In this document: positions 1,419 to 15,493 of the stretch, piece after piece
Layout: each line of letters begins with the position of its first letter
Numbering within the stretch: position 1 is the first letter of the stretch
Source: a virus
Virus record (IMG/VR): IMGVR_UViG_3300009603_001659
Coordinates: 1 to 22,855 of that record
DNA length: 22,855 bases
Strand: one strand, 5' to 3'
Position numbers and translations under genes: made by a program
Notes under the pieces: generated by a model
Databases searched by the model: none
Seen by the model: the letters and a program-made list of their open reading frames with translations, nothing else
What the model was told of the DNA's origin: nothing

Positions 1419-2480
1419 TTAATTTTGCCCTAATAGTTGATTCATGGTATCAGCGGCCAAATCCATGCAATCGGATTTTTCTTCTATCAAACCAAGCTCT
1501 TCGAATATTCTTCCGACTCTATGAAAATAGGTATGATTAGCAACAACCTTATGAAAGCCCCTGTTGATATATGGAATTCTTTCATCAGGATATTTCAAAT
1601 AGTGGTTGATAAGTTCAACAAATTCCTCTGGGTCTTTGGCAAAAACAATTTCGTCTTCATCAAAAACATCTTCCGCCATGGATTGTACGTAATCTGAAAT
1701 GCAGAACCCGCCACTAAACAGAACCTTGAATGGTCTCTCTATAACATCATAGCCAAAAACTTGAGAATGTGGCTCACTTATATTGGGACAAATTGTAGCG
1801 GACCTAAAAACGTTCTTGACTTCTTGGTTTTCTATGAAGCCCATGTACTGACATACTGGCCAGTTTTGTCCACCAAATATTTTGACGTTATACCTCCCAA
1901 CAGGATGACACAGCGGAATAATGTATCTGTCCAAGGTCTTTGCTTTGTACGGCCAATACCCGCCGACAAAAGAAATGTCGCTAACAAGGTGGTCGAACGT
2001 TCTGGAGCGGTTATACTCAAACACGTCCGCAGCATGCATCATTGAGATTGGCTTTATGCCTATCGTTTCCCACTTCCCATGAGTTTTTTTTACCCAGTTG
2101 TCGTGATAATGATTATACACGAAGTCTGGCTTGCCTGTTTCTTCTTTTAGTTGCCCCATGAGGTCTATTTCATCTTGTCGAGCTACCAGAATGGGATATT
2201 CTTTTAGGTCAATTTTGTCCTGCTGTTCTCCCCAATCAGACGCCCTGAGAACCACCTTTAGGTGTGGTCTGTCCTTGATGCACTTGAAAACAGCCCTGTC
2301 AAGATTGTAGGTCTGCCCAATAAATATATCAGGCTCGAATTCATCAAAGGCATCAAACGCGGGCTTTTCGAAAATATCCCAGAGGATTACTTCGTGGCCC
2401 ATAGCCGCAAATACTTTGGCCCAAGCCATTCTAATATGATAATGGGCGTGAGGCCCATCGCTAGCAATCATTACCCTCAT
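1419..2480 (-). CDS. CgeB-like glycosyltransferase (GT-B fold)
   Basis: This 353-aa protein starts MRVMIASDGPHAHYHIR and resembles the CgeB/Glyco_trans_1_2 group of GT-B glycosyltransferases. The N-terminal half has alternating strands and helices, with a FEPDIFIG strand near residue 50. The C-terminal half carries the donor-domain pattern GYDVIERPFKVLFSGGF, then DPEEFVELINHYLKYP and a closing GFHKVVANHTYFHRV segment, which is typical of this group (the region where RxxEALACG would otherwise stand). No signal peptide or membrane segment is visible, so it should act in the cytoplasm. The ATG overlaps the stop of the nucleotidyltransferase gene by 4 nt (ATGA). Donor and acceptor are unknown; CgeB itself is a spore-coat glycosylation protein of Bacillus. 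Confidence 0.72.
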   Translation of the reverse strand: MRVMIASDGPHAHYHIRMAWAKVFAAMGHEVILWDIFEKPAFDAFDEFEPDIFIGQTYNLDRAVFKCIKDRPHLKVVLRASDWGEQQDKIDLKEYPILVARQDEIDLMGQLKEETGKPDFVYNHYHDNWVKKTHGKWETIGIKPISMMHAADVFEYNRSRTFDHLVSDISFVGGYWPYKAKTLDRYIIPLCHPVGRYNVKIFGGQNWPVCQYMGFIENQEVKNVFRSATICPNISEPHSQVFGYDVIERPFKVLFSGGFCISDYVQSMAEDVFDEDEIVFAKDPEEFVELINHYLKYPDERIPYINRGFHKVVANHTYFHRVGRIFEELGLIEEKSDCMDLAADTMNQLLGQN

Positions 2481-3187
2481 TGTAAATCCTTAATGGCGTC
2501 TACTTCGTATATTTCCATTTCTTGTGGTTCAACAGCCTTTAACGCTCCGTTGTTTTTAACAATATTGTTCAAAATTTCAAAGGTGTACATTTTGTTTTTG
2601 TTTCTATCCGAGCATTCTTTTCTAAACATGTATAGCTCATTGCCCGTAAGATAAACGATTTGTGCCCATTTTGTGGAAAGCCCGTAGGCAAAAGTCGTAA
2701 CCATTCCATCAACTATAGTTACGCCTATTTCATCATCCTTAAATCTACCAGAGGAGTCTGTGATTATACAAGATTCGTTTCTATCAATGGCTTGTATGGT
2801 TTTAGGATTAAACACTAAGTCTCCGTGTATTATCAGAACACTGTCGGAAACAGAGTTGTTTATGGCTAGCCTCAAGCTCTCTATGGTGTTGGTTTCTTTG
2901 TATAGTTGATTTTCTATAATTCTCACGTAGTCAGGAATTTTGCTAATAATTTTGTCAGCCTCAAAGCCCACACAAACAATAATCTCGTCTTTGGAAAAAA
3001 CCGTATTTACGTTTTGTATGATTTTCTCAATAATTGTTTCGTTCTCATTGACATTTAAAAGACACTTAGGGCCATAAGACTTCATCCTATACCCAACGCC
3101 AGCAGCAGGAATAATAACGCTCATTGTTTGAGGTTTTTTATTTCGTCCCCTCTTGGTCGGGGCTATAAATCTATTATATCTGGCCAT
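2477..3187 (-). CDS. Sugar/choline-phosphate nucleotidyltransferase (LicC-like)
   Basis: This 236-aa protein has the nucleotidyltransferase fold: signature PAAGVGYRM at 27-35 with PK at 40-41 (the GxGxRxxPK class) and a metal-binding HGD at 121-123. The segment KETNTIESL at 97-105 resembles the TNNIYSL region of choline-phosphate cytidylyltransferase LicC, so an amino-alcohol phosphate or sugar phosphate may be the substrate. It would make an activated CDP-, GDP- or UDP-donor for the neighbouring transferases. I chose the ATG at 3187 because AAAGG lies just upstream; an internal ATG at 3124 (MSVIIPAAG) would give the minimal domain but has no visible ribosome site. It overlaps the upstream GT2 gene by 14 nt. 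No LicA or LicD-like gene is present to settle the substrate. Confidence 0.78.
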   Translation of the reverse strand: MARYNRFIAPTKRGRNKKPQTMSVIIPAAGVGYRMKSYGPKCLLNVNENETIIEKIIQNVNTVFSKDEIIVCVGFEADKIISKIPDYVRIIENQLYKETNTIESLRLAINNSVSDSVLIIHGDLVFNPKTIQAIDRNESCIITDSSGRFKDDEIGVTIVDGMVTTFAYGLSTKWAQIVYLTGNELYMFRKECSDRNKNKMYTFEILNNIVKNNGALKAVEPQEMEIYEVDAIKDLQ

Positions 3188-10505: not shown

Positions 10506-12188
10506 TCATATTTGAAAAACTTTTTGAACAATTAGGCTGTCCTTTTTCTTAGACCTCTGCCCTGTTACGAGGATGGTGTTTCCTTCGTATAGTAAATGTT
10601 TATTTTTTGCCCACTCGTCGCTAAAGCAAATAACATTATCTAATTCACAACTACTGTCTTCTAAAGTTAAAAATCCCATTTTTTGTCCTTTGGATTGTCC
10701 TCTGGTGATTTCATATTCACGAGATGATTTTACCGCAACCGCTAAAACTGCGGTCCCGTTTCTGCCACTGAGAAACTCTTTGCACGTTGAGTTTGCAGCA
10801 CCTGTATCACAAGAGTCTACCTTGGAATATGTAAGGCAGGTTCCCAGCAATTCTTCCTCGGTTCCAGAAACCCACTCAGGGTCATCTTGAAGGGAGTAGG
10901 GGGAAGACTCCAGTTGGTATACATAGTCTGCGACAATCTCAGACCTTTTTATTGTGGAGGTTCCTCCACCGTTCTTTTTCGTGGGCCGTAAACTCTCTAA
11001 GCACTGTTTGAGGTTTTCCCAATCGGAGTCCTCCACATTATCGCCAACCCACTCTCTTTCCTTCGCGGTTAGTTTTGCCCATATATCATATTCGTATAAC
11101 ATTTTGTTTCTGCTCAAGCCTATGTGTGATAATGCACCGGCTGATATTAGAGAAGTTATTACCTTGCTGGTGACCTTGGTGGCACAAGATACTAAAAATT
11201 CTAACCAAGACCAATCCGCTGGAGGCTTGCATAACTCATGAGTAGCTTCAAGGACTGCGTTAGTCAACTTTTCTAATTGGCTGTCCCCGATAAATTTTAC
11301 ATCCCCCACACCAAAGTTAATTTCGTTATTATATATGGAAAAGCTGCGATTCATCTTGGCAATCGACGGTGGGTAAATAGGTACATCAGATATTTTTGCA
11401 TCAGACACCAATTCTCTTATCTCTTGTTGAGAGTCCTGTTTTCCTTTTGAGTAATACAAATAGTTGCAGTAAAAATTGACAGGAAAATGCGCTTTAGCAT
11501 AAGCAGACCAATAGCCACAAATAGCATAGCTAACAGCATGGGACTTATTAAAAGCGTAGCGATTCGACTTTTCAATCCAACCGAATATCTCTTCCGCTGT
11601 TTCTCTAGAAACCAAGCCGACATTTTCTGTTCCAGATAAAAATTCTTTCTTTACTGCGGCCATCAAGTCGGCCTTCTTTTTGCCTATTGCTTTTCTAAGT
11701 TCGTCAGCCTGTTGCAAGTCAAACCCGGCAATTGTCTGAGCAATTTCCATGGATTGTTCTTGATAAACCAACACTCCCTGAGTTGATTTTAATATAGGTT
11801 CTAGGCAGTCATCGAGATAAGATACCTCTTCTTCTCCGTGTTTTCGGTCAACATAATGCTGTGTCATAGACTTCCCGCCCACGATTGCCTTCAAGCATCC
11901 CGGTCTAATCAAGGCGACAAGAGCGGCTAGCTGCTCTATATTTCTAGGCTTTAATCTCTTCGCCCAAGATTTTCCTAGATTGCTCTCAAGTTGAAAAACC
12001 CCCTTGGTCCTCCCGTCACATATCAGGCCCCATGTTTTTTCACAGGTATAAAAGTCAGCATCTTTGTCCTGTTTTTCTGCGATATCAAAGACAACCGGCG
12101 GTAGACCGGTTTGCTTCTTTGTGACCGGGTCTTTGTCTATTTCAGAAATATCGAATTCACACCCACACTTAAACGTATAGCGTGCCAT
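10506..12188 (-). CDS. dnaE: DNA polymerase III alpha, C-terminal piece (fingers to OB fold)
   Basis: Read from the ATG at 12188 (MARYTFKCGC; AAAAGG lies 9 nt upstream) this is 560 aa; the frame extends to a TTG at 12206. Homology to bacterial DnaE starts near residue 40 (VFDIAEKQDKDADF, then GVFQLES at 63-69) and continues with VALIRPG, the YQEQ of the fingers at 142-145, AIGKKKADLM and the FNKSHA motif at 213-218. The later region contains EELLGTCL, and the last 80 residues form an OB fold (KMGFLTLEDSSCELDNVIC, ILVTGQRSKK). The PHP and palm domains are absent and are encoded separately at 13499-15493. The first 40 residues, with a CxC pair at 8 and 10, have no DnaE counterpart I recognise. 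No QxxLF-type clamp motif is obvious. It should pair with the N-terminal piece as one replicase. Confidence 0.9.
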   Translation of the reverse strand: MARYTFKCGCEFDISEIDKDPVTKKQTGLPPVVFDIAEKQDKDADFYTCEKTWGLICDGRTKGVFQLESNLGKSWAKRLKPRNIEQLAALVALIRPGCLKAIVGGKSMTQHYVDRKHGEEEVSYLDDCLEPILKSTQGVLVYQEQSMEIAQTIAGFDLQQADELRKAIGKKKADLMAAVKKEFLSGTENVGLVSRETAEEIFGWIEKSNRYAFNKSHAVSYAICGYWSAYAKAHFPVNFYCNYLYYSKGKQDSQQEIRELVSDAKISDVPIYPPSIAKMNRSFSIYNNEINFGVGDVKFIGDSQLEKLTNAVLEATHELCKPPADWSWLEFLVSCATKVTSKVITSLISAGALSHIGLSRNKMLYEYDIWAKLTAKEREWVGDNVEDSDWENLKQCLESLRPTKKNGGGTSTIKRSEIVADYVYQLESSPYSLQDDPEWVSGTEEELLGTCLTYSKVDSCDTGAANSTCKEFLSGRNGTAVLAVAVKSSREYEITRGQSKGQKMGFLTLEDSSCELDNVICFSDEWAKNKHLLYEGNTILVTGQRSKKKDSLIVQKVFQI

Positions 12189-12852
12189 CTGCAAACGCCT
12201 TTTCAAATTTAGTTTTGGAACCGATTCTTCTCTGATGCTTCCAGAATCGTATAAAGATATTCGCCGTATCTTTCACGTCTTGCAGGGCGTCGTGAGCATT
12301 TTCTGTCTCCAGAGATAAAAAGTCTCTCATGGAATCCATACTCATAGATTTAACATTTGGATTACTTTCCAGCCACCCATAAGCTAGGTCTAAAACATCC
12401 ACCTTATGAATTTTATGAAAGAGCGCTTGATTACCGTTTTTATCAACGGGGCCAAACTGTTCGCACAACCTTTGTATGATAATCATGTCATAGTTGATAA
12501 TATTGTAACCCACGGGTATAGGGGCAAACCATTGTGTTTTCTTGAAGTTGTATTTATTAACGAACTTTACAAATTTTTCCCAAACCTGTTTGGGTTGTGG
12601 GGCTTTAGCTAATGTCTTCCTATCTTTTCTGGTAATACTTAGGGCTTCTTCTTCCAGAGGGTCTAGCCCCATTTCTATCGCCTTTTCATCATCAAGGATG
12701 GGGCGAATCTCACTGTTGAAAAACCCTCCGGGCTGTGGGGTTAGCTTTCTGCCATGGATTGCTACTGCCGCCAATTGTGTGGGCTGGGCTTTATGGGGGT
12801 TCTTCGAACCCGTTTCAAAATCAAAAACAATGTAATCTCTACTAGGTATCAT
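12169..12852 (-). CDS. DnaQ-like DEDDh 3'-5' exonuclease
   Basis: This 227-aa protein carries the four acids and histidine of the DEDDh exonuclease family: D11-x-E13 in VFDFETG (motif I), D122 in VGYNIINYDM (motif II) and H187-x4-D192 in NAHDALQDVKD (motif III). The family removes 3' mismatches and acts as the epsilon proofreading subunit of Pol III. The gene lies between the two replicase pieces and overlaps the C-terminal piece by 20 nt and the PD-(D/E)XK gene by 11 nt, so a role as proofreading subunit of this replicase is a strong inference. The ATG at 12852 starts just before the first strand (RDYIVFDFETG). Confidence 0.9.
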   Translation of the reverse strand: MIPSRDYIVFDFETGSKNPHKAQPTQLAAVAIHGRKLTPQPGGFFNSEIRPILDDEKAIEMGLDPLEEEALSITRKDRKTLAKAPQPKQVWEKFVKFVNKYNFKKTQWFAPIPVGYNIINYDMIIIQRLCEQFGPVDKNGNQALFHKIHKVDVLDLAYGWLESNPNVKSMSMDSMRDFLSLETENAHDALQDVKDTANIFIRFWKHQRRIGSKTKFEKAFADGTLYV

Positions 12853-13339
12853 TCAACATCTCCTTAATCAATTTGACCGCTTCGGCTTTTTCTAGACTGT
12901 CTATTCTTTTGAACAACTTGTTCAGAATAGACTCCTTGGTATACACGTAGCCAGCAGAGTTGTTGTCGCCCCCAAAGGCTACCTTTTTATGAGGCTCAAC
13001 CTCTTCCATAAATTCTCTTAAGGAAGAAACAGAGGAAATCCACACCGCTTTAGAACCATCGTCTTCTGGCAAAACGTGAATCCATAAGTTAGCCTTGGTT
13101 ACAGCAACACCGCTAGGTTTGTCGGCCTTGCTGTTGTGGTATTCTATGTAAATATTGCCCGTAGTGCTAGACTTGTCGTCAAATTTAACTTCGACAGTAA
13201 ATTTCTTTCTTCCCATTTTGCAAGACAGGTCGTAGTCATATCTTTTGTCATAGTCTTCATTGATTTCGCACTTTATATCAAGCAGTTCAAGGACTCCCTT
13301 GGCACACTCCTCCCCCTTTTTGCCTTTTTGAAAACTCAT
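12842..13339 (-). CDS. Predicted PD-(D/E)XK endonuclease
   Basis: This 165-aa protein shows the restriction-endonuclease-like core: an N-terminal helix with E10/E11 (KKGEECAKGVLELL), then D35/D37 in RYDYDL, and E50-x-K52 in FTVEVKFDDKS; these are the D and ExK of the active site. A following strand GNIYIEYHNSKADKPSGVAVTKANLWIHVL resembles the GNIxIExxxxGKPSGIxxTxA region seen in phage nucleases of this class. It could resolve or trim DNA structures during replication or recombination, or degrade host DNA. The ATG overlaps the upstream stop by 4 nt. It is embedded between the two replicase pieces. Fold assignment is fairly secure; DNA target is unknown. Confidence 0.72.
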   Translation of the reverse strand: MSFQKGKKGEECAKGVLELLDIKCEINEDYDKRYDYDLSCKMGRKKFTVEVKFDDKSSTTGNIYIEYHNSKADKPSGVAVTKANLWIHVLPEDDGSKAVWISSVSSLREFMEEVEPHKKVAFGGDNNSAGYVYTKESILNKLFKRIDSLEKAEAVKLIKEMLNDT

Positions 13340-13554
13340 CTAATTTTTCTCTTGAGTTCTAAAAATTTCTTTACAGCTTGCGAGGAGCTTTCATAGAACT
13401 CGCTGTGCTTAACCTTTGTATCGTCGCAATGAACTTGATACAGAGTCTTTCTACGAAAAGAATTGCCTTTATAATCGTTAATTGTGCATAAGGATAGTCT
13501 ACCCTTCTCCAACGCACACCCGTCCAGTAGAACTGCTTCGTAATGCTCCTTCAT
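13336..13554 (-). CDS. Small basic protein of unknown function
   Basis: This 72-aa protein is not recognised. It is basic, with a predicted strand-rich middle (SLCTINDYKGNSFRRKTLYQVHCDD) and a C-terminal helix (SSSQAVKKFLELKRKIR). The ATG has GAGG six bases upstream, which supports real translation. Its first 56 nt overlap the end of the replicase N-terminal gene in another frame. It ends in an ATGA overlap with the nuclease gene. Position suggests a link to the replicase or nuclease, but nothing in the sequence proves it. Confidence 0.65.
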   Translation of the reverse strand: MKEHYEAVLLDGCALEKGRLSLCTINDYKGNSFRRKTLYQVHCDDTKVKHSEFYESSSQAVKKFLELKRKIR

Positions 13555-15493
13555 CGTTAACCTCTATATCTCCTGAGAATAATTGATTACTAATACCCAT
13601 GATTTTATCTAGCAAATTTACACCCAAAATATCAAATTTAACATGTCCCATGGCTTCTAGGTCTACCATTTCCATGCCAGCAATTCTATCTTGCCCTTTG
13701 GTTTCTCTAACCATTGGACAAACTTCATTAAGTATTCTGGATGAAATGACAACTCCAGCAGCATGCTTGCCTTGAGATTTGTATGTACCCTCAATTCGAA
13801 TAGCCTGTGCAAACAATTTTGCGTATTCGCCATCGAGAGAGCCATCTTCTGTTACCCGACAATAATCATTCAAGACTTCTGGCTGATGTAGCATCGTCCA
13901 TCGTATTACCGAAGACTCTTCCATGTCTTGTAGCTGGTCCGAAATTTCGTGTTCCTGCGGCAGCGCCTTGGTAATTCTGTTCATTTCATCGTAGGAACAG
14001 GCGCTGTGTACGCGGAGAACCTCTTTAAGCGCACTCCTACCTTGCAGTCTTCCAAATGTAACCATCTGGCTAACATTATTATACCCATACTTAGATTTGA
14101 TGTAGTCAATTACTTCGTCCCTTTTTGTGGCGGGGACATCAATATCTATATCTGGAAGTGAGACATGGCCCTCAGAATTTCTCCCCGCATTGTAGAATCT
14201 TTCAAAAATCAACCCATATTCAATGGGGTCCACTTGAGTGATTCCCACTAGGTATGACACCAAACAGCCAGCAGCGGAGCCTCTACCCGGACCCGGAAGC
14301 CACCCCTGTTTTTTCACATAAGATACGATATCTCTTACAATTAAGAAATACCCTGAAAGATTTGCGTCATTGATAACTTCTAGCTCTTTCTTAATTCTGT
14401 CTACATAGATATCTTCATTTTCCTGCGTAGATACCCTGCCTCGTTTTTTTAGTCTTTGTATCCACCCTTGTCTGCACAACTCTCTGAGATATTCCTTTTC
14501 GGCCATGTCGTCGGGACATGAGAACTTAGGAAGATTGGGTTTCCCCAAAATTTCATAATCCTCACACATGTCCGCAATAAGCAAAGTGTTTGAAATTTCC
14601 TCTTCGGTGTGAATCTCTTTCATCTCTTCTAGAGACGGTATGTGAAAATTATTTGAACGGAAGAATCCACTTAGGCCGACATCGTCTCCTGTTAGCAATT
14701 TCTCTTCAACTTTTTTAAGCGTTGTTTTCATGGCGGAACAAAGTAGTACCCTCTGGTCCGCTGCGTCTTCTTTTCTTGGATAATGCGAGTCTGCTGTTGC
14801 TACAGGAGGGATGCCAGTCTTTTCCGATACTTTGCGTAGACACTCTCCGACCAGTTTTGATGCTGGCGAGTTGTCTTGGTCTATTAGTTGAATCTCGATG
14901 AAGAAATTGCCCTTGCGGAAAATGCTCTGATACCTTTTGGCCAAATTGGAGGCTTGTTCGAACCAATCTGGTTTCAATAATTTTTGGGCTTCCTGATACG
15001 AATCGGAATTATACGCCTGTTTACAATCAGTAAATAGCACATTCGCAAGGTCGCTACCAAGATGACCGCTGAACGACACTAGATTTTTACCTGCATTGTG
15101 CTCTTCAAGTATGTCTAAGTCAATTCTGGGCTTAAAATAAAACACATCGTCCTTGTTGCTTCTAGAAACAAGCTCAATAAGGCTGTCCCATCCATCCTTA
15201 TTCTTTGCAAGAACCACAAGGTGGCTAAGCGACCTGTTTGTTTTCTCTTTTACGGTAGCGGATTCACGCACGGTCAGGTAGAACTCACATCCGAGAATGG
15301 GCTTGATGCCCTTTTCACGCATCGCTCTGACGAACGAGACGGCCCCTGAAATCGTCCCGTGGTCAGTTACGGCACACGCATCGTACTCTAGCTCCTCGCA
15401 GCGTTCTGCGACCTGTGAGGGCTTCGAGAGGCCATCTAGGAGGCTGTAGTGTGTGTGTAGGTGCAAGGGGATGAATTTAACCGGGTGCATCAT
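13499..15493 (-). CDS. dnaE: DNA polymerase III alpha, N-terminal piece (PHP and palm)
   Basis: Read from the ATG at 15493 this is 664 aa; the frame extends to a TTG at 15532 inside the upstream gene. A PHP domain opens it with a full set of likely metal ligands: HLHTH at 11-15, TDHG at 43-46, GCE at 68-70, SGH at 142-144 and ADSH at 234-237. The palm follows: GPGRGSAAG at 401-409 and PDIDIDV with catalytic D448 and D450, then KHAAGVVIS, and VKFDILG with the third catalytic D621. It stops about 43 residues later (ending RVCVGEG), before the fingers. The fingers and all later domains lie in a separate gene at 10506-12188, three genes downstream. The last 18 residues are encoded in overlap with the 72-aa gene. 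Confidence 0.92.
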   Translation of the reverse strand: MMHPVKFIPLHLHTHYSLLDGLSKPSQVAERCEELEYDACAVTDHGTISGAVSFVRAMREKGIKPILGCEFYLTVRESATVKEKTNRSLSHLVVLAKNKDGWDSLIELVSRSNKDDVFYFKPRIDLDILEEHNAGKNLVSFSGHLGSDLANVLFTDCKQAYNSDSYQEAQKLLKPDWFEQASNLAKRYQSIFRKGNFFIEIQLIDQDNSPASKLVGECLRKVSEKTGIPPVATADSHYPRKEDAADQRVLLCSAMKTTLKKVEEKLLTGDDVGLSGFFRSNNFHIPSLEEMKEIHTEEEISNTLLIADMCEDYEILGKPNLPKFSCPDDMAEKEYLRELCRQGWIQRLKKRGRVSTQENEDIYVDRIKKELEVINDANLSGYFLIVRDIVSYVKKQGWLPGPGRGSAAGCLVSYLVGITQVDPIEYGLIFERFYNAGRNSEGHVSLPDIDIDVPATKRDEVIDYIKSKYGYNNVSQMVTFGRLQGRSALKEVLRVHSACSYDEMNRITKALPQEHEISDQLQDMEESSVIRWTMLHQPEVLNDYCRVTEDGSLDGEYAKLFAQAIRIEGTYKSQGKHAAGVVISSRILNEVCPMVRETKGQDRIAGMEMVDLEAMGHVKFDILGVNLLDKIMGISNQLFSGDIEVNDEGALRSSSTGRVCVGEG

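What the first reader, a model, noticed from the sequence alone, without database searches (positions are those of the whole stretch)
10506..15493. Replicase split in two, with three genes embedded between the halves
Seen: PHP and palm with all three catalytic aspartates (PDIDID and KFDILG) end in one gene; fingers (GVFQLES, YQEQ), FNKSHA and the OB fold start in another, 1.3 kb downstream. Neither half repeats the other, and together they cover a complete DnaE-type enzyme. The break falls between palm and fingers, not at the FNKSHS site used by the cyanobacterial split DnaE intein. I infer a two-subunit replicase that assembles without splicing. Split Pol III genes may already occur in environmental phages; I cannot check.
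Basis: partly seen in the sequence, partly recalled or inferred. Interest (0 to 1): 0.75.

Follow-up and report, generated by a model that had tools for sequence, protein, structure and literature searches.

The report
Phage replicase split into two genes
A large group of uncultivated phages makes its main DNA-copying enzyme as two separate proteins, with the gene for a proofreading nuclease always lying between the two halves; the sequences suggest the halves work as a complex without being spliced together, an unusual and testable variant of the bacterial replicase.

Summary
A DnaE-type Pol III alpha is encoded in two genes: PHP+palm (13499-15493 -) and fingers+HhH+OB (10506-12188 -), 1.3 kb apart, with a 72-aa ORF, a 165-aa ORF and a DEDDh exonuclease between. 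It is not a one-off: in all 183 related loci with both halves (53 lineages at ~70% identity) the break is at the same palm/fingers boundary and the exonuclease gene lies between; none is fused. Catalytic residues are conserved in virtually all, both halves are under purifying selection, and no other polymerase (family A, B or a second C) was found in 18 large contigs. No intein or intron was found. Best reading: an obligate two-chain replicase plus proofreading subunit from overlapping genes, assembled without splicing. Physical assembly is inferred, not shown. Split phage Pol III has precedents: a different minimal split form in jumbo phages (PMC7824862), and cultured phage phiT1 (perhaps P1201) broken at the same place without an exonuclease between. 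New variant of a known kind.

The parts
13499..15493 (-). alpha-N: N-terminal half of DnaE-type Pol III alpha (PHP + palm/thumb, three catalytic Asp), 664 aa
   Evidence: Pfam PF02811, PF07733; PDB 2hpi match to Taq residues 4-625; catalytic D448/D450/D621 conserved in 180 of 183 loci
10506..12188 (-). alpha-C: C-terminal half (fingers, HhH, OB fold), 560 aa
   Evidence: Pfam PF17657, PF14579; PDB match Taq 653-964; AlphaFold pLDDT 93.1 and Z 22.9 to DNA polymerase 5lew residues 605-933
12169..12852 (-). DEDDh (DnaQ/epsilon-like) 3'-5' exonuclease, 227 aa; gene overlaps the start of alpha-C by 20 nt
   Evidence: PF00929 5e-12; phrog_192 'DNA polymerase exonuclease subunit' 6e-23; D,E,D,H,D invariant 183/183 and always between the halves
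13336..13554 (-). small ORF 'S', 72 aa, overlaps the 3' end of alpha-N by 56 nt; conserved in 71 loci, function unknown
   Evidence: AlphaFold pLDDT 85.8, no solved-structure match with E<=0.001
12842..13339 (-). 165-aa ORF 'E', phrog_13596 (unknown); looks by eye like a PD-(D/E)XK nuclease; found in the window's own subclade
   Evidence: phrog_13596 2e-13; found in L002, L003, L014, L015, L081-L089 and not in most relatives
12189..13498 (-). the break between the halves (palm/fingers boundary), 1310 bases

Best explanation
The two genes encode two separate subunits of one family-C (DnaE-like) phage replicase. Alpha-N carries the PHP domain and the palm with all catalytic aspartates. Alpha-C carries the fingers, HhH and OB domains that hold the template, the incoming nucleotide and the duplex. 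Neither half can be a polymerase alone, so they must meet non-covalently at the palm/fingers boundary. They are made, with a DEDDh proofreading exonuclease (epsilon-like) and in this subclade two further small proteins, from one run of overlapping genes. Shown here: domain content, fixed break point and gene order across the clade, conserved active-site residues, purifying selection, no detectable intein or intron, and no other recognisable polymerase in the contigs. Inferred: physical assembly, translational coupling, that the exonuclease is this polymerase's proofreader, and that one ancient event created the split.
For: 183/183 related loci have the order N - exonuclease - C, none fused, while the same pipeline of 80 GTDB loci and the first six loci from annotated records intact. 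Catalytic Asp residues 180/183; fingers motifs FQLES, YQEQ, GKK and FNKSH in 175-183 of 183; DEDDh 183/183. dN/dS 0.055-0.12 for both halves and about 0.03 for the exonuclease against close relatives L082 and L003. One palm and one fingers gene in each of 18 contigs up to 166 kb; no family A or B polymerase in 18 contigs up to 224 kb. The window block also holds primase, DnaB helicase, UvsX-like recombinase and SSB. Genes overlap: N/S 56 nt, S/E 4, E/exonuclease 11, exonuclease/C 20. N, C and exonuclease distance matrices correlate, r 0.67-0.79. The split group separates from intact DnaE in N, C and joint trees. Alpha-C is predicted to fold on its own as the fingers-to-OB part of alpha.
Against: Correlated distances are expected from shared ancestry alone. 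Tree support for the split group is modest (SH-like 0.76 joint, 0.55 N, 0.33 C). Some of the 183 loci are repeat fetches of one contig. Contigs may be incomplete, so another polymerase cannot be fully excluded.
Confidence: 0.85

Rival explanations
1. The halves are joined after translation or at RNA level (split intein or trans-spliced intron), giving one alpha chain as in cyanobacteria.
For: DnaE split by an intein is known in cyanobacteria (PMC3919608). One relative, L164, carries a split intein, but inside the palm at GRG|SAAG, not at this break.
Against: No intein or Hint family on either half at E<=1. Halves end and begin within some 20-50 residues of the expected boundary, leaving no room for an intein. 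No Rfam intron in the window or nine relatives. The exonuclease gene overlaps the start of alpha-C.
Confidence: 0.04
2. The split gene is not the replicase: one half is a relic, or another polymerase replicates the phage and these proteins have a repair role.
For: Contigs may be incomplete. Jumbo phages of group 2.2 carry a minimal split Pol III beside a family B polymerase (PMC7824862).
Against: Both halves keep active-site motifs in about 180 of 183 loci and are under purifying selection. No family A or B polymerase in 18 contigs up to 224 kb, with working controls. The genes sit in a primase-helicase-recombinase-SSB block.
Confidence: 0.08
3. The break is a sequencing or assembly error, or a recent fracture on its way to loss.
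For: P1201 shows two overlapping DnaE frames where its relative C3PO is annotated as one gene, so frameshift-like breaks do occur.
Against: Same break with about 0.6 kb or more and a conserved exonuclease gene between in 183 loci and 53 lineages; dN/dS well below 1.
Confidence: 0.01

Closest known systems
Bacterial DnaE1-type Pol III alpha with separate epsilon (E. coli, Taq)
   Same: Domain order PHP-palm-fingers-HhH-OB, catalytic motifs, separate DEDDh exonuclease
   Different: One chain there, two chains here; no C-terminal tau-binding domain after the OB fold; exonuclease gene lies between the halves
Split minimal Pol III alpha of group 2.2 jumbo phages (Iyer et al. 2021, PMC7824862)
   Same: Pol III catalytic subunit in two standalone proteins thought to reassemble
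   Different: Theirs lacks the other Pol III domains, is encoded by distantly located genes and accompanies a family B polymerase; here PHP, HhH and OB are present, the genes are close together and no family B polymerase was found
Rossellomorea phage phiT1 gp20/gp18 (PV767480) and Corynebacterium phage P1201 gp59/gp58 (NC_009816)
   Same: DnaE broken at the same palm/fingers boundary
   Different: phiT1 falls outside the split group in the tree (about 32% identity); only a 49-aa ORF or nothing between, no exonuclease gene; P1201 may be a frameshift
Cyanobacterial split DnaE with split intein
   Same: DnaE encoded in two genes
   Different: Break at another site and rejoined by an intein; no intein here
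PolC with internal exonuclease
   Same: Exonuclease lodged within the polymerase coding region
   Different: In PolC the exonuclease domain is fused inside the PHP domain (PMC3919608); here it is a separate gene between palm and fingers

Membership tests
DnaE-type (family C) Pol III alpha | PHP domain followed by Pol III palm with catalytic Asp triad | tested here: met
   PF02811, PF07733; D448, D450, D621
DnaE-type (family C) Pol III alpha | Fingers, HhH and OB domain C-terminal to the palm | tested here: met
   PF17657, PF14579; structural match of model residues 26-560 to Taq alpha 635-1121
DnaE-type (family C) Pol III alpha | Single polypeptide | tested here: not met
   Two genes in 183/183 loci; so it works like a DnaE but is a two-chain variant
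DnaE-type (family C) Pol III alpha | C-terminal tau-binding domain and internal clamp-binding motif | tested here: inconclusive
   Chain ends at the OB fold; no motif seen by eye; no beta-clamp gene in 19 records
Split-intein DnaE | Intein fragments at the ends facing the break | tested here: not met
   No intein family at E<=1; termini of both halves across the clade show no intein
DEDDh DnaQ/epsilon exonuclease | RNase_T family with D-E-D-H-D residues | tested here: met
   PF00929; 183/183
DEDDh DnaQ/epsilon exonuclease | Binds alpha and proofreads its errors | not testable with these tools
   Gene position only
Iyer split minimal Pol III alpha | Only nucleotidyltransferase and template-binding parts, no other Pol III domains, beside a family B polymerase | tested here: not met
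   PHP present; no PF00136 in 18 contigs

The most novel reading that the evidence does not exclude
The exonuclease is a structural bridge: alpha-N, exonuclease and alpha-C form an obligate three-chain core, built by coupled translation of the exonuclease and alpha-C. This would explain why the exonuclease gene has never left the gap, while the PHP metal site has been lost in about half of the clade. The small protein S (or, in a sister group, an apparently unrelated ~60-aa ORF) could be a further core subunit.
Probability: 0.3. Interest if true: 0.72.

Novelty: new variant of a known kind. Interest (0 to 1): 0.6.

Why it matters
Family C replicases of cells are single chains, apart from those rejoined by inteins. 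A whole phage clade that keeps palm and fingers on separate proteins would show that the active site of a replicase can be assembled across a subunit interface, give a natural split point for engineering, and offer a way to test how proofreading is tied to polymerisation.

Tried and rejected
Intein: rejected. Self-splicing intron: nothing in Rfam. Intact relatives within the clade: none in the scans of IMG/VR and GTDB; a scan with L064's C half found only itself. T4-like capsid PF07068: no hit, but no control rang either, so uninformative. S fold: no match with E<=0.001; weak dsRBD-like rows not trusted. Exonuclease against PDB by sequence, and exonuclease and S against cultured phages by tblastn: no match. 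The 2009 'fractured genes' paper (NAR gkp095) is not held. P1201 as a clean precedent: doubtful, may be a frameshift. L261 (Myxococcales fragment) was called split by the pipeline but is a 4.3-kb contig with a partial match and no intervening ORF, so it was set aside.

Full report
What is there. The window is a 22,855-base virus record. On its minus strand a DnaE-type Pol III alpha is encoded in two genes. The first (13499-15493) has a PHP domain and the full palm profile; the second (10506-12188) has fingers, HhH and an OB fold. Against solved structures the first ends near Taq residue 625 (E. coli ~563) and the second begins near Taq 653 (E. coli ~594), so nothing is duplicated and only the linker is missing. 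An AlphaFold model of the second half alone is confident (mean pLDDT 93.1) and aligns to solved alpha subunits from the fingers through the OB fold. Between the halves lie a 72-aa ORF (S), a 165-aa ORF (E, phrog_13596) and a 227-aa exonuclease with RNase_T and 'DNA polymerase exonuclease subunit' matches. The genes overlap one another by 56, 4, 11 and 20 nt. The block also includes primase, DnaB helicase, a UvsX-like recombinase, a dNMP kinase, SSB and a sigma factor.

It is a fixed feature of a large clade. Scans of IMG/VR with either half and with an alignment of C halves, and one scan of GTDB genomes, gave 183 loci with both halves (176 viral, 7 in GTDB assemblies; some contigs were fetched twice). 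All 183 are split, with the exonuclease between, in the order N - exonuclease - C on one strand. They comprise 53 lineages at about 70% identity, window included. N halves end just after KFDxLGxxxLDKIM and C halves begin some 20-60 residues before GVFQLES. The spacing varies from about 0.6 to 6.8 kb because other genes enter the gap: an Endonuclease_7 (HNH) gene, a T5orf172 (GIY-YIG-like) gene, a uracil-DNA glycosylase and, by eye, metabolic genes. The same pipeline scored ordinary bacterial DnaE as intact in 70 GTDB loci.

It is functional by sequence. The palm aspartates are present in 180 of 183 (the three exceptions are apparently the loci where the N half is itself broken, L123, L164 and L189), the fingers motifs in nearly all, and the exonuclease's D-E-D-H-D in all. 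dN/dS is 0.055-0.12 for the halves and about 0.03 for the exonuclease. Eighteen contigs up to 166 kb have exactly one palm and one fingers match, and 18 contigs up to 224 kb have no family A or B polymerase although the controls rang. No beta-clamp gene was found either. The PHP metal site, by contrast, is kept in only about 82-87 of 183 loci.

How it works. The catalytic residues lie on one chain, and the fingers that hold template and nucleotide lie on the other, so by established knowledge of family C polymerases neither should be active alone. There is no intein on either half and no known intron nearby. In one relative, L164, a split intein does interrupt the palm at GRG|SAAG, while the palm/fingers break in the same locus has none. 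Non-covalent assembly is therefore the best reading; it remains an inference. That the exonuclease is the proofreader, and that the overlapping genes are translationally coupled, are also inferences, from gene position and overlap.

Origin. In joint, N-only and C-only trees the split loci separate from intact DnaE, with a long stem but modest support (0.76, 0.55, 0.33). A single old event fits, with later gains and losses of genes in the gap. Homing-type nucleases in the gap make a nuclease-driven fracture plausible, but this was not tested.

Known relatives. Split Pol III alpha has been described in group 2.2 jumbo phages, as a minimal form, in distant genes and beside a family B polymerase (PMC7824862). 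A survey of marine jumbo phages reports the Pol III palm domain PF07733 in 51.9% of one genome cluster, without mention of a split (PMC9123017). In GenBank, Rossellomorea phage phiT1 has DnaE broken at the same boundary with a 49-aa ORF between, and Corynebacterium phage P1201 has two overlapping frames there. Staphylococcus phage PhiSepi-HH3, Lactobacillus phage Satyr, Microbacterium phage Rie18, Pseudomonas phage PA5 and Bacillus phage vB_BpsS-140 are broken at other points. None of these has the exonuclease arrangement, as far as the annotated stretches show, and the exonuclease and S have no tblastn match among cultured phages. I found no paper describing this clade's split in the library searched.

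Verdict. Observation confirmed, interpretation supported, assembly untested. New variant of a known kind; interest 0.6.

Noticed in passing
L164:1730-4069: A split intein interrupts the palm of the N half at GRG|SAAG: N-intein at the end of ORF 1730-3148 (weak PF14890, PF05203), C-intein ending ...GIGVHN|SAAG at the start of the next ORF.
   Followed up: partly
L189:1045-4116; L123:2343-4125: The N half is broken a second time inside the palm; in L189 a LAGLIDADG-type gene lies in that break.
   Followed up: partly
L272 (PV767480), L280 (NC_009816): Cultured phages phiT1 and P1201 have DnaE broken at the same palm/fingers boundary, apparently outside this clade; P1201 may be a frameshift.
   Followed up: partly
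L278, L279, L281, L282, L107: Cultured phages with DnaE broken at other points (after PHP, or before or within the palm); their records do not comment on it.
   Followed up: partly
window:10476-10504 (-): Perfect sigma-70 consensus TTGACA-17-TATAAT starting one base after the stop codon of alpha-C; none in 100 shuffles.
   Followed up: yes
window:20735-21157 (-): 140-aa ORF matching homing endonuclease families (phrog_9084 9e-16) next to the UvsX-like gene.
   Followed up: no
L192, L194: Two different split loci on contigs of one Lokiarchaeota bin (JABXKB01); mis-binned phage or an archaeal virus, not resolved.
   Followed up: no
L021, L036, L048, L055, L075, L097 and others: PHP metal ligands lost in about half of the clade while the exonuclease active site is invariant.
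   Followed up: partly
L114-L148, L188, L190, between N half and exonuclease: A second small ORF family (about 57-66 aa, core ISCC...NA) occupies the slot that S has in the window's group; the sequences look unrelated.
   Followed up: no
L103 (AFYI01000001): The phage collection holds at least one bacterial contig (Salmonella chromosome with dnaE), so counts of phage DnaE there are inflated.
   Followed up: no
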